The notes beneath the pieces are model-generated. The model had not been told where the DNA came from. It was given only the letters and a program-made list of their open reading frames with translations, and ran no database searches. Positions 3,259 through 16,299 of a stretch of DNA of 46,553 nucleotides are shown piece after piece (the stretch's first letter is position 1; each line of letters starts with the position of its first letter). This DNA is from Bacteroidales bacterium. Its GTDB lineage: Bacteria; Bacteroidota; Bacteroidia; Bacteroidales; UBA932. Made by a program: the position numbers and the translations under genes. The stretch is from the NCBI GenBank assembly GCA_017616655.1, contig JAFZXU010000067.1, positions 1 to 46,553 of the forward strand, in the 5' to 3' direction.

Positions 3259-4914
3259 TTACTTCACGTGTGCGAATTCCACATCCTTCTCGGCGCGCTC
3301 TGCGAACGCTTTGTTAGCGCTTGCCTTTGCGAGCTCGCTCTTGGCCGTCTCGACGTCACCCTTGCGGGCAGCGATGATAGCCTTGTAGTAAGCCATCCTC
3401 ATGCAGTTGTGGCTGGCAGCCTTGTCGGAAGCGGTCTTGAGGTCGTTGTTGAGGATTGCGGCGAGAACTGCATTGTGGTTGTTGACATCCTTGAGTTTAG
3501 CAGCCGCATCGGCGTACTTGCCGTTGAGGATGTCGATTACGGCGGCATTCTCGTTGGCAACCTTGCCGGCCTTGTCGAAGTACCTTGCAGCTTCGTCGTT
3601 GTTGCCTGCGCGCATCGCAACCACACCCATGATGTTGTTGTAAGCGTCACCGGTCTTGTCGTTGATAGCCTTTAGGTAGTCCTTTGCGTTGTTATCCTCG
3701 TTCTTGAGGAGGCTGATGACTGCTGCGTTGTACTTTGCGCGGTCGCTGTCAAACTTTGCGATGGCCTTCTTGTAAGCTGCAAGCTTCGCATCGTTGTCCT
3801 TGACGAGTGTAGCGGCGCGGAGGAGAGCCTCTTCGTCGAGAACGTTGGCATTGTTCTCGAGGAGGTCGGTGAGCTCTTCAGCGGTGTAGTTCGTGTACTC
3901 CACGTTGGTGATGAAGCGTGCGCGGCGGAGTTCAGGAAGGATTTCGTCTGCGAGAGAGGTATAGACCGAAGACATGTTCTTGATCTCGCGCTCGCGGACG
4001 TTGGGATCGCTGTACATCGAGAGGACGCGGAGGATCAGATCCTTGTCTTCGATGTTGGACTTCTCCACGAGCTCCTTGAAGCCTTCCCAGTCCTCACCGA
4101 TGCTGCGGGTGGAAACGTTGCCGGCATCGACCTTCTTGGTGAGCTTTTCAAAAGCCTTCTTCGCGCTCTTTTCGCGGTCTGCGGAGAGTTTGTTGTTGAG
4201 GCCGATAGGGCCTTCGGGAGATGCGTAAGCTACGATTTCGGTACCCTTGACATTCTTGCGGGCGTCATCCTGCAGAGCCTTGAGGGCATTGAGGAAGTTT
4301 GCTATGTCAGCGCTCTTGAGCTCTGAATTGCGGACCTCGGAGCTGTTGACCTTGTAGAGGATCTGAGCCTCTTCCTGCATGGGGATGACTTCCATATAGT
4401 TGTCAGCCAGCAGGGGAAGATTCTCCTTGCCAGACCTGTCTACAAGCATATAGGTGGTGTTGGCGCCGTCTGCGATCTTGATGTCGGCGGGATAGACATA
4501 TTCGTTGCCCTTGTAGTAAACCTTTGCGCGTGCCACGAGCTCGGATTTTTCCATTCCGGGAACATAGTCGAAGCTGACCTTCTCGGTGATTGTAGCGCCG
4601 TTCTTGTGGTCGACCACCTTGTAGTTGTCGGCTACCTTGTCGCCCTGATAGGTGAAGGGCTTGCCGACCGCCTCACCTCCGACATAGAGGATGACGGGAG
4701 TCACCTCGAGGGTTGCCTTGGGGAGGAAGTAGTCTGCAGGGAAGTTGACGGAGATGGTGGCGTCGATCTTGTCTGCCACGACCTCGAGAACCTCGGGAAC
4801 GCACTTGATCTTGATTTGTTCAGCGGCCTCTGCCATCTTGGCAGCGTTGTTGCAGGAAGCGGCGAGCATAACCACGCCGGCTGCGAGCAGAATGTTTCTG
4901 AAAGTCTTTTTCAT
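3259..4914 (-). CDS. Lipoprotein with OmpA-like and TPR regions
   Basis: The 551-residue product has a lipoprotein signal peptide ending in LAASC, with acylated cysteine C21, so it should be anchored in the outer membrane. Residues about 40-180 form a beta-rich N-terminal region. Residues about 185-330 contain an OmpA-C-like segment (YASPEGPIGLNNKLSADREK), which in that family binds peptidoglycan. The remaining third is helical and alanine-rich, reading like tetratricopeptide repeats. Such OmpA/TPR lipoproteins are common in Bacteroidales and have no well-defined function. The gene stands alone, convergent with nrdDG and divergent from the sigma-54 regulator, with its own -7 element upstream. 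Confidence 0.85.
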   Translation of the reverse strand: MKKTFRNILLAAGVVMLAASCNNAAKMAEAAEQIKIKCVPEVLEVVADKIDATISVNFPADYFLPKATLEVTPVILYVGGEAVGKPFTYQGDKVADNYKVVDHKNGATITEKVSFDYVPGMEKSELVARAKVYYKGNEYVYPADIKIADGANTTYMLVDRSGKENLPLLADNYMEVIPMQEEAQILYKVNSSEVRNSELKSADIANFLNALKALQDDARKNVKGTEIVAYASPEGPIGLNNKLSADREKSAKKAFEKLTKKVDAGNVSTRSIGEDWEGFKELVEKSNIEDKDLILRVLSMYSDPNVREREIKNMSSVYTSLADEILPELRRARFITNVEYTNYTAEELTDLLENNANVLDEEALLRAATLVKDNDAKLAAYKKAIAKFDSDRAKYNAAVISLLKNEDNNAKDYLKAINDKTGDAYNNIMGVVAMRAGNNDEAARYFDKAGKVANENAAVIDILNGKYADAAAKLKDVNNHNAVLAAILNNDLKTASDKAASHNCMRMAYYKAIIAARKGDVETAKSELAKASANKAFAERAEKDVEFAHVK

Positions 4915-10324: not shown

Positions 10325-12112
10325 TCAATCGAGTTTGAGAACGGCCATAAAGGCTGACTGAGGCACTTCGACCTGTCCGATCTGCCTCATTCTCTTTTTA
10401 CCGGCCTTCTGCTTTTCAAGCAGTTTGCGCTTACGGGTGATGTCGCCGCCATAACACTTGGCGGTGACATCTTTTCTGACCTGACGCACCGTCTCGCGGG
10501 CGATGATCTTGGCGCCTATGGCGGCCTGGATGGCTATGTCGAACTGCTGGCGCGGGATGAGTTCCTTCAGCTTCTCGCAGATCTTGCGGCCGAATTCGTA
10601 TGCGTGGTCCTGGTGGATGAGGGTGGAAAGGGCGTCGGCCGGCTCTCCGTTGAGCAGGATGTCGAGCTTCACCAGCTTGGCCGGGCGGAAGCCAATCAGA
10701 TGGTAATCGAAGGATGCGTATCCCTTTGAAATGCTCTTGAGTTTGTCGTAGAAGTCGAAGACAATTTCGGATAGGGGCATCTCGTAGGTGAGTTCCACGC
10801 GGTCCGCGGTGAGGTAGTGCTGCCCCTTGAGAATGCCGCGCTTGTCGAGGCAGAGTTTCATTATAGGGCCGTAAAACTCTGATTTTGAGATAATCTGTGC
10901 TGAGATATAGGGTTCCTCGATATGGTCGATAAGGGTTGGTGCGGGAAGGCCCGAAGGGTTGTGCACGTCGAGCACCTGTCCTTGCGTGGTGAATACCTTG
11001 TAGGAAACGTTGGGCACGGTGGTCACCACGTCCATGTCGAACTCGCGGAAGAGGCGTTCCTGCACGATTTCGAGGTGCAGCAGGCCGAGGAAGCCGCAGC
11101 GGAATCCGAATCCCAGCGCGAGTGAACTCTCCGGCTCGAAAACCAGCGAGGCGTCATTCAGCTGGAACTTTTCCAGAGAAGCGCGAAGGTCCTCATATTC
11201 ATCCGCCGTAACGGGGAACATACCCGCATAAAGCATCGGCTTCACATCCTCGAATCCGGCAATAGCCTTGTCGCAAGGTCTTTCGAGGTGGGTTATGGTA
11301 TCTCCTACCTTCACCTCCACGGCCGTTTTTATACCGGAGATGATATATCCCACGCTGCCGCAGGGAATCTCGTCGCGCGGGCAGAGCTTCATCTTGAGCA
11401 CGCCCACCTCGTCGGCGACATACTCCTTGCCGGTGTTGAAGAACTTTACCTTGTCGCCGGTGCGGATGGAGCCGTTCTCCACCTTGAAGTAGGCAATGAT
11501 GCCGCGGAAGGCGTTGAACACCGAGTCGAAGATGAGTGCCTGCAGGGGCGCTTCAGGGTCGCCCTGCGGGGCGGGTATGCGGTCCACTATGGCATCGAGG
11601 ATCGGGGCCACGCCCTCTCCCGTACGGGCCGAGGCCAGGAGAACGTCGTCAGGGTCGCATCCGAGCAGGTCCACCACCTGGTCGCGCACCACGTCCACCA
11701 TCGCCGCGTCCATGTCGATCTTGTTGAGGACCGGGATTATCTCCAGGTCGTGCTCGATGGCGAGATAGAGGTTGGAGATGGTCTGCGCCTGGATGCCCTG
11801 GGTGGCGTCCACCACCAGCAGCGCTCCCTCGCAGGAGGCGATTGCGCGGGAGACCTCATATGAAAAGTCCACGTGGCCCGGAGTGTCGATGAGGTTGAGG
11901 ATGTAGTTCTCCCCGCCGCGCTTGTACTCCATCTGGATTGCGTGGCTCTTGATGGTGATGCCCTTCTCCCTCTCGAGGTCCATCGAATCCAAGACCTGGT
12001 TCTCCATATCCCTGGTATCAAGGGTATTGGTGAGCTCGAGCAGCCTGTCCGCCAGGGTGCTCTTGCCGTGGTCTATATGCGCTATTATGCAGAAATTGCG
12101 GATGTTCTTCAT
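10325..12112 (-). CDS. lepA: Elongation factor 4 (LepA), translational GTPase
   Basis: LepA acts on stalled or assembling ribosomes and can back-translocate them. The 595-residue protein has normal family length. It carries the G1 motif AHIDHGKST (about residues 11-19), the G3 motif DTPGHVDF, and NKID as G4. The C-terminal LepA-specific domain includes [20 protein letters not shown]. All catalytic GTPase residues are intact, in contrast to the EF-G paralogue at 19209-21326. It is a single gene with its own minus-strand -7 element, and it converges on the GIN-domain gene with no bases between the stop codons. Confidence 0.97.
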
Positions 12113-12131
12113 TTCCGTGGTTCAAGTCCTG

Positions 12132-12139
12132 CAAAGATA
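12132..12139 (-). promoter_or_regulatory. -7 promoter element of lepA
   Basis: On the minus strand TATCTTTG matches TAnnTTTG, 19 bases before the lepA start codon at 12112. It lies back to back with the plus-strand element at 12169-12176. Confidence 0.6.
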
Positions 12140-12167
12140 ATCATATTCCGTTAATCGCAGATTATCC

Positions 12168-12201
12168 TTATCTTTGTAGATAACTCAATTCTCTGATTAT
12201 G
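12168..12201 (+). repeat. 34-bp direct repeat, left copy (promoter/leader plus ATG)
   Basis: Bases 12168-12201 match 14486-14519 at 32 of 34 positions by eye. The first 21 bases are identical (starting TTATCTTTGTAGATAACT), followed by a single mismatch, TCTCTG, another mismatch, then TTATG. Each copy ends on the start codon of the gene that follows it. The two copies bracket an AT-rich pair of lipoprotein genes, so the structure looks like an insertion that duplicated the transketolase promoter/leader. Confidence 0.85.
12169..12176 (+). promoter_or_regulatory. -7 promoter element of the AT-rich lipoprotein pair
   Basis: TATCTTTG matches TAnnTTTG, 22 bases before the ATG at 12199. It is part of the 34-bp repeat shared with the transketolase promoter, so both units should respond similarly. 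Confidence 0.65.
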
Positions 12202-13938
12202 TTTAGGTTTATTTATAAGTTCTTTTATTTGGTTTTCGTAGGTATTATCATTGTCGGGTGCTCTTTATTTGACGATGGTTTTTTTGAAACGAAAACGGAT
12301 AAAGTCACAAGAGAGTACGTTGATTCCCACAGGCGTATAACCATCACAGAGATACCGGAGTTAACAGATGGTAAAATCCTGGGTAAAAAACTGCCAAACC
12401 CCTATTCGATGGATGTTATGTCCGAAGCCTGGGAGATATTGCATCCCCTTACCCGCGAGGACCCTGATACGACTGAACATAATCTTGAAGCCACTCATAT
12501 TTATATAAGGATGCTTCCTGAAGATGCGTCTGACGTTGATTGGTTACTTGAATCGGACTACGAGTTTTTCAATTATCCCCTTGATTACGAGATTCTGGGA
12601 GATCCTGACGAGTATCACGATCCGTCGTTGCTCGACAGCACCGTCACCTGGCTATATACCGTGATGCCCATAGACGCGTCGCTTCCTCCTATGGATTATG
12701 AAATCGTTGATGTCTGTTATATTCCGGACGATGAGCCTCAGAATAATAACCCGAACGGCCTGACTCCGATTGAGCAGATAGCCTTCGGTCTTATTGGTGG
12801 CTCTGAACTCAACGATTTGGGAGATATAGATTGGGAGGAGCCGGAACCGGGAGACGGTACACATCCCGGAGGCGGAACTGGAGGCAACGGAAATCTCCTG
12901 CAAGGCGATTTGACATATCGTGATAGCCTTTTGCATGAGACAGTTGGTATCAAATGTGTCAAAGTGACCCTTCGCCAAGGAGTCAAAACACAATCAGTAT
13001 ATACCGATGAAAATGGTCATTATCAAATGCCCAATGTGTTTGGAGCGTCTCCAAAACTAATAGTTACATTCCAAAACTCCGAAGGCTTCTCGTGCCATTA
13101 TGGATATCGCTTATACAATGGACGGTATACAAAGTCGATTGGAATCGGCTTGTCATGGTCAATAGATTCGATAGAAGAAAACAAGAGTTGGGCTATGGCA
13201 ATCATTAATAATACAGCATACGAATGGTATAAGTACTGTGAAACTAATTATATTCAAAAACCTGCAAGTGATCTGAGAATAAAAGCTATAGAATCTGGTG
13301 AAAAAGTAGCGGCCACTTTAATGATGAAACACGGTATGGCTTTTTATGCAACTATCGCTCAAATCATAGAGTTTTTAAATGGTATTAATAGCGGACATAT
13401 ATGCACTGGGCCACGGCTCTCATTATTGAGTTTAACTCTACAGCTTTTTTTACCGGATATTATGGTTTGTGGTGCAGAACAACGATCTTCTTCATCCTTT
13501 TATGGCTCCGTTATGCATGAATTATCTCATGCATCACATTTCCAACAACTTGGTACAACAAACCCGGCAAGATGCCTTTGGTGGAGAGATGTATTCAGCT
13601 ATGAGGCGTCCTGTCTGATTAATTATTCTGAACCCTATGGCTTTTCTACGGATTTTGGCAATGGACTATGTGGTGTAACAGAGATGTGGGCTCATGCCGC
13701 AAGTGACGTACTCTTAAAGAATAAGTATAACGCTTATTATCCCACTAAATACTGGTTTAAGAATAAAGCTTTGGAGCATCTTTTTGATAATGGTATTATA
13801 TCCATAAAAAATGCCTTTGATGTTTTGTCACCACAAGTCACGAATATTGATATGTTTCAATACCAGTTGCAACAAGCATTCCCTCAACATTCTTACGTGA
13901 TTGATACAACTTTTTCTAGCCCAACTTTTTTGCCATGA
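12199..13938 (+). CDS. Surface lipoprotein with a CarboxypepD_reg-like domain and an HExxH metallopeptidase motif
   Basis: A 579-residue lipoprotein: the signal peptide ends IIIVGC with C21, followed by SLFDD. Acidic residues soon after the cysteine resemble the surface-export signal of Bacteroidetes lipoproteins (inference). About residues 235-300 look like a carboxypeptidase-regulatory beta-sandwich (TLRQGVKTQSVYTDENGHYQ). H440-E441 and H444 form an HELSH zinc site, with H447 close by. E495 in VTEMWAHA is a plausible third ligand, giving a gluzincin-like arrangement. The substrate is unknown and I do not recognise a named family. The gene is much more AT-rich than its neighbours, overlaps the next lipoprotein gene by 4 bases, and lies between 34-bp direct repeats, which suggests acquisition. 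Confidence 0.8.
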   Translation: MFRFIYKFFYLVFVGIIIVGCSLFDDGFFETKTDKVTREYVDSHRRITITEIPELTDGKILGKKLPNPYSMDVMSEAWEILHPLTREDPDTTEHNLEATHIYIRMLPEDASDVDWLLESDYEFFNYPLDYEILGDPDEYHDPSLLDSTVTWLYTVMPIDASLPPMDYEIVDVCYIPDDEPQNNNPNGLTPIEQIAFGLIGGSELNDLGDIDWEEPEPGDGTHPGGGTGGNGNLLQGDLTYRDSLLHETVGIKCVKVTLRQGVKTQSVYTDENGHYQMPNVFGASPKLIVTFQNSEGFSCHYGYRLYNGRYTKSIGIGLSWSIDSIEENKSWAMAIINNTAYEWYKYCETNYIQKPASDLRIKAIESGEKVAATLMMKHGMAFYATIAQIIEFLNGINSGHICTGPRLSLLSLTLQLFLPDIMVCGAEQRSSSSFYGSVMHELSHASHFQQLGTTNPARCLWWRDVFSYEASCLINYSEPYGFSTDFGNGLCGVTEMWAHAASDVLLKNKYNAYYPTKYWFKNKALEHLFDNGIISIKNAFDVLSPQVTNIDMFQYQLQQAFPQHSYVIDTTFSSPTFLP

Positions 13939-14450
13939 AACAATTAGTCAAAGTCTTGTTGTTTTTATTGTGTTGTTCTTTTCTTTCAGGATGCTTTAGT
14001 ATTGACAATTATAGTTATCTTCGTTGTAGCATAATTAATAGGTGTTCTGATACGTTAGGTGTAAAAACAATAGGCGTTGCACCAAATCCCGATATTTCCG
14101 GTCTCGTAAGAGAGAATCAACTTGATTATTTCAAGCCAGAATCTGGAAAATGTATTTATTCGTTTTCTTGGGAATATTATGATACTGTTGATTACAGGGA
14201 TCATTTCAATGATATATTTGCTGCGCAGGATGCTCGTATAGAGATTTATGATAAAAACGGAATTCTGTTGCGTTGTTGGAAAGAATCAGATAAGGACACT
14301 GAGCCAGACAATATCTTTAACATTGACAATTGGCGCGTCAGTCACTCAAATCATCAGCTTAAAAAATTGTGTGGCGAGGTATATGGGGAGCAGGATGAAT
14401 TCTATTGCGATTATTTCATCACTCCGGAAATGCTGGGTCTGAAAGAATAA
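13935..14450 (+). CDS. Small lipoprotein, partner of the metallopeptidase-like protein
   Basis: A 171-residue product with a clear lipoprotein signal (FLSGC, C20). The mature part is beta-rich with scattered cysteines (C32, C37 and others). It contains an ExxYDKNG-like turn (ARIEIYDKNGILLRCW). I recognise no family. Its ATG overlaps the stop of the preceding gene (ATGA), so the two are translated together and may act together at the cell surface. It shares the low GC and odd codon use of that gene. The stop is followed within 36 bases by the second copy of the 34-bp repeat. Confidence 0.7.
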   Translation: MKQLVKVLLFLLCCSFLSGCFSIDNYSYLRCSIINRCSDTLGVKTIGVAPNPDISGLVRENQLDYFKPESGKCIYSFSWEYYDTVDYRDHFNDIFAAQDARIEIYDKNGILLRCWKESDKDTEPDNIFNIDNWRVSHSNHQLKKLCGEVYGEQDEFYCDYFITPEMLGLKE

Positions 14451-14485
14451 CGCATTTTATTCCATATTTCTTTCGTAGAGATTGA

Positions 14486-14519
14486 TTATCTTTGTAGATA
14501 ACTCAAATCTCTGTTTATG
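14486..14519 (+). repeat. 34-bp direct repeat, right copy (transketolase promoter/leader)
   Basis: Right-hand partner of 12168-12201, ending on the ATG of the transketolase N-terminal subunit gene. The 2,318-bp period between the copies corresponds exactly to one repeat plus the AT-rich two-gene segment. Confidence 0.85.
14487..14494 (+). promoter_or_regulatory. -7 promoter element of the transketolase operon
   Basis: TATCTTTG matches TAnnTTTG, 22 bases before the ATG at 14517, with the same leader as the element at 12169-12176. Confidence 0.65.
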
Positions 14520-15356
14520 GATTACACTTTCGAACAGATATCCTCGCAGGTCAGGAGGGATATCGTGCGTATGGTGGCAAAGGCGGCCTCCGGCCATCCG
14601 GGCGGCTCGCTCAGCAGCACCGATATAATGACCTATCTCTTCTTCAGGGAGATGCAGGTGAGCCCCGAAACCTGGAAACGCAACGGGCAGGGACTCGACA
14701 TGTTCTTCCTCTCGGCGGGCCACATCACCCCCGTTTATTACAGCGTACTGGCCCGCAGGGGCTACTTCCCGGTTGAGGAACTCAACACCTTCCGTCTCTT
14801 CGGCACCCGTCTGCAGGGCCATCCCTGCGTGGAGAAGGGGCTTCCCGGCGTGAACCAGGCCGCAGGCAGCCTCGGACAGGGGCTTTCCGTTGCTGCAGGA
14901 GCGGCGGCAGGCAAGAAGATCGCAGGCGACCCCCACAGGGTATTCTGCCTCGTAGGCGACGGCGAGAGCGAAGAGGGTCAGATATGGGAAGCTGCGCTCG
15001 TTGCAGCCCACCACAAGCTCGACAACCTCGTGGCAATCACCGACTGGAACGGGCAGCAGATAGACGGCAGCACCGAGGATGTGGCAGGACTGGGCGACCT
15101 CGAATCCAAGTGGAAAGCTTTCGGCTGGGAGGTGATAGTCGCCGACGGACATTGCTTCAAGTCTATCGAAAAAGCCTTTGCAGAGGCCCGCGAGAAGGGC
15201 GGCAATGGCAAACCCGTTATGATCCTCTTCCGTACCGAAATGGGCCACGGAGTGGACTTTATGGCCGGTACCCACAAGTGGCACGGCAAGAACCCTTCGC
15301 CCGAGCAGTGCGAGGAGGCAATGAAACAACTTCAGGAAACAATGGGAGACTTTTAA
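14517..15356 (+). CDS. Transketolase, N-terminal (thiamine diphosphate-binding) subunit
   Basis: Together with the next gene product it transfers two-carbon ketol units in the pentose phosphate pathway. The 279-residue protein has the conserved SGHPGGSLS motif (about residues 24-32), used in cofactor and substrate binding. The thiamine diphosphate/metal motif GDGESEEGQIWEA is at about residue 147. It ends before the pyrimidine-binding domain, which is encoded separately one base downstream. Transketolase is usually a single chain of about 660 residues; split forms are known in many bacteria and archaea. The promoter and leader are the right copy of the 34-bp repeat. Confidence 0.95.
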   Translation: MDYTFEQISSQVRRDIVRMVAKAASGHPGGSLSSTDIMTYLFFREMQVSPETWKRNGQGLDMFFLSAGHITPVYYSVLARRGYFPVEELNTFRLFGTRLQGHPCVEKGLPGVNQAAGSLGQGLSVAAGAAAGKKIAGDPHRVFCLVGDGESEEGQIWEAALVAAHHKLDNLVAITDWNGQQIDGSTEDVAGLGDLESKWKAFGWEVIVADGHCFKSIEKAFAEAREKGGNGKPVMILFRTEMGHGVDFMAGTHKWHGKNPSPEQCEEAMKQLQETMGDF

Positions 15357-15357
15357 T

Positions 15358-16299
15358 ATGAAAGAATATATCGACACTGGAAAGAAAGATACCCGTTCGG
15401 GTTTCGGAGCGGGACTGGCCGAACTCGGCCGCACCAATCCCAGGGTGGTGGCGCTGACCGCCGACCTCAAAGGCTCCCTCAAGATGGACGAATTCGCCGC
15501 TGAGCATCCGGAGCGCTATTTCGAGTGCGGCATCGCCGAGGCGAATATGATAGGTATGGCTGCAGGCCTTGCCATCGACGGTTTCGTCCCCTTCGCCGGC
15601 ACCTTTGCCAACTTCGCGACCGCCCGCGTCTATGACCAGATACGCCAGAGCGTCTGCTACTCCAATACCAACGTCAAGATTGCGGCATCCCACGCCGGCA
15701 TCACCCTCGGAGAGGACGGCGCGACCCACCAGACCCTCGAGGACATCGGAATGATGCGTATGCTGCCCGGTATGACGGTGCTCTGTCCCTGCGACTATAA
15801 CCAGACAAAGGCTGCCACTATCGCCGCAGCGGAATGGGAAGGTCCGGTTTACCTGCGCTTCGGCCGTCCTTCGGTGCCCAATTTCACTGACCCTGACGAG
15901 AAGTTCGTGATAGGAAAGGCGCAGCAGCTCTCGGAGGGAAGCGGAGTCACCATACTGGCCACCGGACACCTTGTATGGGAGGCAATCCAGGCCGTCAAGG
16001 AGTTGGAAGCCAAAGGCGTGAGCGTCGATCTCTTCAATATCCACACCATAAAGCCGCTCGACGAGGAGGCGATCCTCCGTTCCGTGGCAAAGACCGGAAA
16101 AGTGGTCTGTGCAGAGGAACACCTCATCGCTGGCGGCCTCGGAGAGGCGGTTGCAGGCCTTCTTGCCCGAAACAACCCCGTTCCGATGCGCTTCGTGGCC
16201 ATCAACGATACCTTCGGCCAGAGCGGCAAACCCGCCCAGCTGATGCAGGCCTACGGCCTCGACGCCGCCCACATAGTGGAGGCAGCGCTCTCCCTGTAA
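15358..16299 (+). CDS. Transketolase, C-terminal (pyrimidine-binding) subunit
   Basis: The 313-residue partner contributes the pyrimidine-binding and C-terminal domains of the two-chain transketolase. The motif ECGIAEANMIGMAAGLA (about residues 58-74) contains the glutamate that activates thiamine diphosphate. It begins one base after the stop of the N-terminal subunit gene, so equal expression is expected. The same fold is used by DXS and pyruvate dehydrogenase E1-beta, but the adjacent partner fits transketolase best. Four bases after its stop codon the ECF sigma factor gene begins, placing carbon metabolism and a sigma factor on one transcript. Confidence 0.95.
   Translation: MKEYIDTGKKDTRSGFGAGLAELGRTNPRVVALTADLKGSLKMDEFAAEHPERYFECGIAEANMIGMAAGLAIDGFVPFAGTFANFATARVYDQIRQSVCYSNTNVKIAASHAGITLGEDGATHQTLEDIGMMRMLPGMTVLCPCDYNQTKAATIAAAEWEGPVYLRFGRPSVPNFTDPDEKFVIGKAQQLSEGSGVTILATGHLVWEAIQAVKELEAKGVSVDLFNIHTIKPLDEEAILRSVAKTGKVVCAEEHLIAGGLGEAVAGLLARNNPVPMRFVAINDTFGQSGKPAQLMQAYGLDAAHIVEAALSL

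What the first reader, a model, noticed from the sequence alone, without database searches (positions are those of the whole stretch)
12168..14519. AT-rich two-gene lipoprotein cassette bracketed by 34-bp direct repeats of a promoter/leader
Bases 12168-12201 and 14486-14519 agree at 32 of 34 positions by eye. Both contain the -7 element, the leader and the ATG. The segment between holds two AT-rich lipoprotein genes unlike the GC-rich neighbourhood. The simplest reading is an insertion between lepA and transketolase that duplicated the transketolase promoter/leader, so the cargo is expressed at once. This may be an undescribed type of cassette that hijacks a promoter.
Basis: partly seen in the sequence, partly recalled or inferred. 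Interest (0 to 1): 0.8.

Follow-up and report, generated by a model that had tools for sequence, protein, structure and literature searches.

The report
Inserted lipoprotein gene pair, copied promoter
In one gut-type Bacteroidales genome, two genes for exported proteins (a probable protein-cutting enzyme and a frequent partner) sit as a young insertion next to a metabolic gene and start from a near-identical copy of that gene's promoter; it looks like a one-off event rather than a new class of mobile cassette.

Summary
In detail: 12168-12201 and 14486-14519 match at 32 of 34, and the 18-mer core has no third site in the genome at up to 2 mismatches. The site is a true insertion: 12 of 12 other congeneric loci with divergent lepA|transketolase have gaps of 53-175 bp, against 2,404 bp here. 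Against the sister genome the insert is 12150-14482; the left repeat lies inside it, the right one is the native transketolase promoter/leader. The copies differ at 2 of 34 positions but at 10-11 from the sister's leader, so the copying probably postdates the split. The cargo is an HExxH peptidase-like lipoprotein plus a small lipoprotein, with no Pfam or NCBIfam match above cut-off. Diverged copies of the pair sit elsewhere; the resident uvrA-locus copy is truncated by an IS. The window copy is 55% identical to the sister's: a xenolog or old paralog. Most likely one insertion with promoter-leader duplication.

The parts
10325..12112 (-). lepA (elongation factor 4), left neighbour, divergent
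   Evidence: ORF list; blastn block 10327-12149 to sister G019, 88%; protein 98% to G019
12132..12139 (-). lepA -7 box (TATCTTTG on the minus strand)
   Evidence: sequence; similar boxes in relatives' gaps
12150..14482 (+). insert relative to sister G019 (stands where G019 has 35 bp)
   Evidence: orthologous blastn blocks stop at 12149 and resume at 14483
12168..12201 (+). left repeat: copy of promoter (-7 box 12169-12176), leader and ATG, now in front of ORF1
   Evidence: 32/34 to 14486-14519; only two sites in the genome
12199..13938 (+). ORF1: 579-aa lipoprotein, HExxH metallopeptidase-like
   Evidence: H440 E441 H444 H447 E495 invariant in 42 aligned rows; no Pfam/NCBIfam match above cut-off, no PDB match below E 0.3
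13516..13539 (+). codons of HELSHASH (HExxHxxH), predicted zinc site
   Evidence: sequence, conservation
13935..14450 (+). ORF2: 171-aa lipoprotein, partner family; start overlaps the ORF1 stop
   Evidence: same family beside ORF1 in G019, G000:C29, G000:C30 and, as separate genes, in 22 of 73 public loci, one of them G019
14417..14450 (+). last 34 bases of ORF2, 94-97% identical to resident/sister ORF2 while the rest is far more diverged
14486..14519 (+). right repeat: native transketolase promoter (-7 box 14487-14494), leader and ATG
   Evidence: lies in the block orthologous to G019
14517..15356 (+). transketolase N-terminal subunit gene, right neighbour
   Evidence: 90% identical to G019

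Best explanation
After this lineage split from its sister, a 2.3-kb segment carrying a metallopeptidase-like lipoprotein gene (ORF1) and a partner lipoprotein gene (ORF2) was inserted into the short divergent lepA|transketolase gap, and a second copy of the transketolase promoter, leader and start codon was made in the event. Shown: the empty site in relatives, the repeat and its uniqueness, and that the cargo is not a recent copy of the resident pair. Strongly indicated: the repeat is younger than the species split. Inferred: illegitimate, microhomology- or template-switch-type joining that fused the copied leader to ORF1 at the ATG, followed by retention because ORF1-ORF2 can be expressed from a housekeeping promoter while transketolase keeps its own. 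Also inferred: ORF1 is an exported zinc peptidase and ORF2 works with it, most plausibly as a protecting inhibitor or pro-domain-like partner. The direct repeat would allow scarless loss back to a normal transketolase promoter.
For: Gap of 53-175 bp at 12 of 12 other loci with divergent lepA|tkt. These come from 37 tkt loci in 36 of 40 genus genomes: 13 divergent including the window, 2 in tandem, 16 with lepA on the far side of tkt, 6 with lepA on another contig. Insert edges 12150-14482. The repeat differs at 2/34 within the genome and at 10-11/34 to the sister leader (binomial P 2e-4 to 8e-4). The C30 ORF1 remnant is 68/71 identical to the sister's ORF1 but 40/67 to the window's; C30 ORF2 is 90% against 44%. 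ORF1 in 2 of 40 genus genomes. HExxH plus a distant Glu invariant in 42 of 42 aligned rows, which are the window and 41 of 73 loci chosen for open, near full-length ORF1. ORF2-family genes at 22 of 73 public ORF1 loci, up to six hits at one locus, and one ORF1 with an ORF2-like C-terminal domain (L120 residues 547-683, E 3e-4).
Against: No donor was found: best relative 55% in 398 family genomes and 54% in a pattern-based scan of genome contigs, none in viral contigs (pattern-based) or phage records, one 29%-identical, 23%-coverage hit in plasmids. The joining mechanism is not visible: no transposase among the ORFs, and the upstream extension of the repeat is not significant (p 0.066). Which copy is original rests on a few bases plus contiguity with tkt. 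ORF2 as inhibitor is association only; 50 of 73 public ORF1 loci show no ORF2-family hit. No structure could be predicted.
Confidence: 0.72

Rival explanations
1. A recurrent, undescribed mobile cassette type that duplicates the target promoter/leader and carries varied cargo.
For: Repeat spans exactly promoter, leader and ATG; the insert has sharp edges relative to the sister.
Against: 20 of 21 tested loci with the gene pair show no long match between the flanks, at best two exact 10-base matches; no other cargo in 12 comparable gaps; no further promoter-leader duplication in 385 kb of this genome; no recombinase or transposase seen in the insert.
Confidence: 0.05
2. Old insertion, present in the common ancestor and lost from G019 by recombination between the repeats; the repeats stay alike by gene conversion.
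For: Repeats of this kind could delete scarlessly; the cargo is far more diverged from the sister's pair (55%) than three other genes of the two species (83-99%).
Against: 11 further congeneric loci are also empty; the copies are much closer to each other than to the sister's leader.
Confidence: 0.12
3. No duplication: two promoters converged because both genes answer to the same regulator binding a palindrome around the -7 box.
For: TTATCTTTGTAGATAA is a short palindrome (shuffle p 0.065), and tkt promoters of several relatives carry longer inverted repeats around -7. lepA and tkt promoters here agree at 14 of 15 bases.
Against: The leader beyond the palindrome matches too, which an operator does not require; no third site in the genome has the 18-mer.
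Confidence: 0.06
4. Assembly artefact joining unrelated sequence at the repeat.
For: Draft assembly of 73 contigs, estimated contamination 4.61%.
Against: Longest exact repeat is 21 bases, while two contig ends share 141 bases, which suggests a far longer k-mer; both flanks continue as sister-like chromosome.
Confidence: 0.04

Closest known systems
Bacteroides fragilis C10 protease / Bfi inhibitor gene pairs (bfp1 and bfp4 with bfi genes; PMC2873492, passages seen)
   Same: Protease genes with predicted lipoprotein signals directly next to small exported or lipoprotein genes, co-transcribed there; two of the four protease genes on large genomic insertions; Bacteroidales.
   Different: C10 is a cysteine protease family; ORF1 has an HExxH motif and no C10 match. 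ORF2 shows no Pfam match. No mobile element was seen here.
HExxH zinc metallopeptidases (zincins; clan knowledge recalled)
   Same: Invariant HExxH plus a distant invariant Glu.
   Different: No profile above cut-off and no solved-structure match below E 0.3; fold and activity untested.
Insertion/duplication with short direct repeats through illegitimate recombination (recalled general knowledge)
   Same: Insert bracketed by short direct repeats, empty site in relatives.
   Different: The repeat contains a -7 promoter element, leader and start codon, so the cargo stands behind a copy of a housekeeping promoter.

Membership tests
IS/transposon | transposase gene inside the insert | tested here: not met
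   ORF1 and ORF2 are the only sizeable genes in the insert and neither matches a transposase
IS/transposon | terminal inverted repeats at the insert ends | tested here: inconclusive
   No inverted pair at the ends of the insert itself. One pair (12129-12143 / 14483-14497, 15 nt, 93%) brackets it just outside, but it consists of the lepA and tkt -7 regions, and similar back-to-back boxes occur in empty sites of relatives
IS/transposon | short target-site duplication | tested here: inconclusive
   34-bp direct repeat exists, but it is long, imperfect, and holds promoter and leader
   1 of 21 loci of the pair, the window itself; none further in 385 kb of own DNA
   12 of 12 other divergent lepA|tkt gaps
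HExxH zinc metallopeptidase | HExxH and a further zinc ligand conserved | tested here: met
   H440, E441, H444, H447, E495 invariant in 42 rows; the ligand role of H447/E495 is inferred
HExxH zinc metallopeptidase | zincin fold and catalysis | not testable with these tools
C10 protease / Bfi-type pair | C10 protease domain | tested here: not met
   No C10 match for ORF1 at E<=1 (only SdrD_B 0.014 and CarboxypepD_reg 0.089, below cut-off); two unrelated weak families over 42 rows
C10 protease / Bfi-type pair | protease lipoprotein with adjacent small lipoprotein | tested here: met
   ORF1 stop overlaps ORF2 start; the arrangement recurs at G019, G000:C29 and G041
C10 protease / Bfi-type pair | co-transcription and inhibition | not testable with these tools
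   no expression or biochemical data
Bacteroidetes sigma-A promoter | TAnnTTTG -7 element | tested here: met
   TATCTTTG in both copies; consensus from PMC6847099

The most novel reading that the evidence does not exclude
Copying of a housekeeping promoter, leader and start codon onto incoming DNA is a recurrent way in which Bacteroidales install lipoprotein protease/partner modules, and the resulting direct repeats make the modules scarlessly deletable, so that populations switch between empty and occupied sites.
Probability: 0.05. Interest if true: 0.7.

Novelty: new variant of a known kind. Interest (0 to 1): 0.33.

Why it matters
It gives a datable example of how a newly gained gene pair can acquire expression at once in a phylum whose promoters and leaders differ from the textbook bacterial ones: the tkt promoter, leader and start codon stand copied in front of it. 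It also points to two protein families without a Pfam or NCBIfam entry that I could find: a conserved HExxH lipoprotein found in 171 of 398 sampled genomes of the family, and a partner lipoprotein, sometimes in arrays and at least once apparently fused, whose enzyme/partner relation can be tested directly.

Tried and rejected
AT-richness as proof of foreign origin: rejected, because the same genes are as AT-rich at the uvrA locus of the sister and at G000:C29.

Window pair as a recent copy of the resident C30 pair: rejected by 60% against 96% identity of the ORF1 remnant.

Phage or plasmid carriage: no ORF1 relative in phages or viral contigs, no viral contig with a 20-mer of the repeat, one weak plasmid hit. 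PHROGs and PADLOC profiles were not searched.

lepA|tkt gap as a hot spot: no other cargo in 12 gaps. My first flanks (about 1.5 kb) would have missed a longer insert, so lepA was placed in the genus genomes: of the 22 tkt loci without lepA in the flank, 16 have it on the far side of tkt on the same contig and 6 have it on another contig (undetermined). Four weaker secondary tkt matches were not read.

Other promoter-type repeats: the scan of 1,482,393 bases of fetched loci gave 6 hits of >=27/34 in 2,035 pairs, the window among them. L128 (32/34) lies behind two peptidase genes that share a duplicated tail, and L090 (33/34) repeats a piece of the ORF1 tail behind an ORF2 copy. The remaining three (27-29/34) were not followed up.

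Lipoprotein export signal: acidic residues after the Cys did not separate the ORF1 and ORF2 families (at least two acidic in 11 of 36 against 9 of 28 rows with a recognised lipobox, out of 42 and 38 rows), so no claim of surface exposure is made. My lipobox rule mislocated the Cys for at least the window ORF2.

A first alignment of tkt leaders used the wrong stretch for two loci and one search printed some loci on the wrong strand; both were replaced. The ORF2 C30 row was out of frame and was recomputed. The ORF2 profile was widened iteratively, took in L120's ORF1 itself and a lipocalin-like neighbour at L073, so its counts may include drift; the fusion claim was retested with a profile without L120 and L096 (L120 E 3e-4; L096 only 0.043).

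Papers: PMC2873492 and PMC6847099 were seen as passages only; all others as search listings. A text search for HELSHASH found no paper. No wider claim that the families are unpublished is made.
Full report
What is there. The window is contig C39 of a 2.09-Mb, 73-contig genome, 93% complete. Public records with ORF1 relatives are mostly rumen and gut Bacteroidales MAGs, three of them named Candidatus Cryptobacteroides; I did not look up the window's own name. The nearest sister found, G019, appears to be a goat-rumen MAG (JAFSXX01; its contig has the same length, 56,145, and the same best ORF1 relative). Between divergent lepA (10325-12112, minus) and the N-terminal transketolase gene (14517-15356, plus) lie two overlapping genes, ORF1 (12199-13938, 579 aa) and ORF2 (13935-14450, 171 aa), both with lipoprotein-type N-termini by eye. 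Bases 12168-12201 and 14486-14519 agree at 32 of 34 and both run from the -7 box through the leader to the ATG.

Is it more than chance. The 18-mer core has no third site in the genome at up to 2 mismatches, and the 16-base palindromic core has no third exact site. Among 5,050 pairs of promoter-leader sites in 385,368 bases of this genome, the next best pair agrees at 24 of 34, apart from one 34/34 pair in two contigs that begin with the same 141 bases, which I take as an assembly overlap. Without the promoter box, 17 of 19 leader bases before the ATG still agree, far beyond chance. By contrast lepA and tkt promoters agree at 14 of 15 bases (pair I4), so the -7 core alone would prove little; the leader carries the argument.

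Is it an insertion. Transketolase was found in 36 of 40 genus genomes; 37 loci were read, and four weaker secondary matches were not. lepA lies divergently beside tkt at 13 of the 37, including the window. At the 12 others the gap is 53-175 bp; in the window it is 2,404 bp. At two, lepA and tkt are in tandem. At the other 22 the fetched flank held no lepA. Because a flank of 1.5 kb would miss an insert like this one, lepA was then placed in the same 40 genomes: at 16 of the 22 it lies on the far side of tkt on the same contig, so the site does not exist there, and at 6 it lies on another contig, so the site cannot be judged. Blastn against G019 gives two orthologous blocks, 10327-12149 (88%) and 14483-16298 (85%), so the insert is 12150-14482 and stands where G019 has 35 bp. 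The right repeat belongs to the transketolase block; the left repeat lies in the insert. G019 has the base of the right copy at the one informative mismatch, and the TGA before the -7 region is shared only by the right copy, which agrees with the right copy being native. This rests on few bases.

When. The two copies differ at 2 of 34 bases; aligned to the single leader of G019, with one gap, they have 23 and 24 identities, that is 10 to 11 differences. If the duplication were as old as the species split, 2 or fewer differences would have probability 2e-4 to 8e-4. Gene conversion between the copies could mimic youth and is kept as a rival.

Where the cargo came from. Four ORF1 matches were reported in this genome, falling at three loci: the window, an interrupted pair between metF-like and V-ATPase-like genes (C29), and a 72-residue ORF1 tail with an ORF2 at the uvrA locus (C30). 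At C30 an IS (L041:2447-3774) with DUF4372 and DDE transposase domains stands where the first part of ORF1 should be, and similarity to G019 resumes at 3780. G019 keeps an open pair at that same uvrA locus and an empty lepA|tkt gap. The C30 ORF1 tail is 68/71 identical to G019 but 40/67 to the window, and C30 ORF2 is 90% against 44%. Three other genes at that locus are 83-99% identical between the two species. The window pair is therefore a xenolog or an old paralog that arrived at this site late. No closer relative than 55% was found in 398 family genomes or by a pattern-based scan of one genome for each of 84,980 species, in which records very near the window's own genome may be left out. 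AT-richness is not evidence of foreignness, since the pair is as AT-rich at its other loci.

What the genes are. ORF1 relatives were found in 171 of 398 family genomes and at 73 loci in the public genome collection. In 42 aligned sequences (the window and 41 of those 73 loci, chosen for open and near full-length frames) H440, E441, H444, H447, E495 and six other residues are invariant: an HExxH zinc-peptidase signature. Pfam and NCBIfam give no match above cut-off (weak SdrD_B and CarboxypepD_reg for ORF1; for the families), and the PDB sequence search gives nothing below E 0.3. ORF2-family lipoproteins accompany ORF1 as separate genes at 22 of 73 loci (one of them G019), usually directly downstream, with up to six hits at one locus; 50 of 73 loci show none. 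One ORF1 (L120) appears to carry an ORF2-like domain at its C-terminus (E 3e-4 with a profile that excludes it); a second case (L096) is weak (0.043). This suggests a functional link. An inhibitor or pro-domain-like partner is the reading I favour, by analogy with the B. fragilis C10 protease/inhibitor pairs (PMC2873492, passages), but ORF1 shows no C10 match and the role of ORF2 is untested.

Is it a class of cassette. At 21 loci with the pair (the window, G019, C29, G041 and 17 of the 23 public loci with ORF2-family hits) the 80 bases before ORF1 plus its ATG were compared with 200 bases after the last ORF2: only the window shows a long repeat (score 29 against a shuffle maximum of 12); the next best scores are two 10-base matches (L134 p 0.02, C29 p 0.06). 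No other cargo was seen in lepA|tkt gaps. Across 1.48 Mb of fetched loci the two other strong promoter-type repeats (L090, L128) come from duplicated gene tails within protease/lipoprotein arrays, and three weaker ones were not examined. The evidence fits a single event.

How it most likely happened and works. Inferred: joining by illegitimate recombination or template switching, with the copied transketolase leader fused to ORF1 at the shared ATG. No transposase or recombinase was seen; the inverted pair that brackets the insert is formed by the lepA and tkt -7 regions outside it. A 34-base stretch at the end of ORF2 that is 94-97% identical to the resident or sister ORF2, including third codon positions (9 of 10 identical residues keep the third base there, against 47% of 62 elsewhere), hints that short patches of resident sequence were involved at both ends, but this is an observation without a proven meaning. 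In the present arrangement transketolase keeps its own promoter and the pair stands behind the copy; a simple scan predicts no terminator between ORF2 and tkt, so read-through into tkt is possible. Recombination between the repeats would remove the pair and restore a normal transketolase leader.

Limits. The whole genome could not be scanned for further duplications; 18% was.

Noticed in passing
tkt upstream regions of relatives, e.g. L011, L014, L015, L016, L020, L024, L026 (-7 box 35-42 bases before the ATG): Inverted repeats around the -7 box (e.g. TTTCGTATC...GATACGGAA, TTTGTAT...ATACAAA) whose arms change together between species; shuffle p 0-0.035 in these seven, not significant in most others examined, including the window at 0.065. 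Possibly an operator.
   Followed up: partly
L030-L032, L166, L167, L170: gap between lepA and tkt: The lepA and tkt -7 boxes stand back to back as a palindrome, CAAAGATAATGATTATCTTTG, in distant congeners.
   Followed up: no
genus genomes, lepA and tkt places: lepA stays close to tkt in much of the genus, but on either side of it and in different orientations: divergent at 13, tandem at 2 and on the far side at 16 of 37 tkt loci.
   Followed up: partly
G000:C30 (L041:2447-3995): An IS with DUF4372/DDE transposase and GTGTCCGG.../...CCGGACAC ends replaces the 5' part of the resident ORF1; no target-site duplication noticed by eye, which suggests an adjacent deletion.
   Followed up: partly
G000:C29 (L040:5817-8071, minus): A third, diverged ORF1-ORF2 pair beside a metF-like gene, with ORF1 interrupted.
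   Followed up: partly
L161:1-6133 (G000:C35), L041:1-5550 (G000:C30), L039:5126-12123 (G019): Similar slots: a TPR-type protein and a DUF3244-like small protein in front, a GTGGATGGGAG...CTCCCATCCACTTTTTT-type hairpin behind, and different peptidase/lipoprotein cargo between (a streptopain-like protein by eye at C35, ORF1-ORF2 at G019, its remnant at C30).
   Followed up: partly
window 14417-14450: The last 34 bases of ORF2 are 94-97% identical to other ORF2 copies although the rest is about 52% identical over aligned codons: a possible recombination seam.
   Followed up: partly
L120:5980-8034: An ORF1 homolog with an apparent C-terminal ORF2-like domain, a natural fusion that would link the two families.
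   Followed up: yes
L134:3495-7430: A Treponema MAG contig with an ORF1 homolog followed by six ORF2-family hits, outside Bacteroidota.
   Followed up: no
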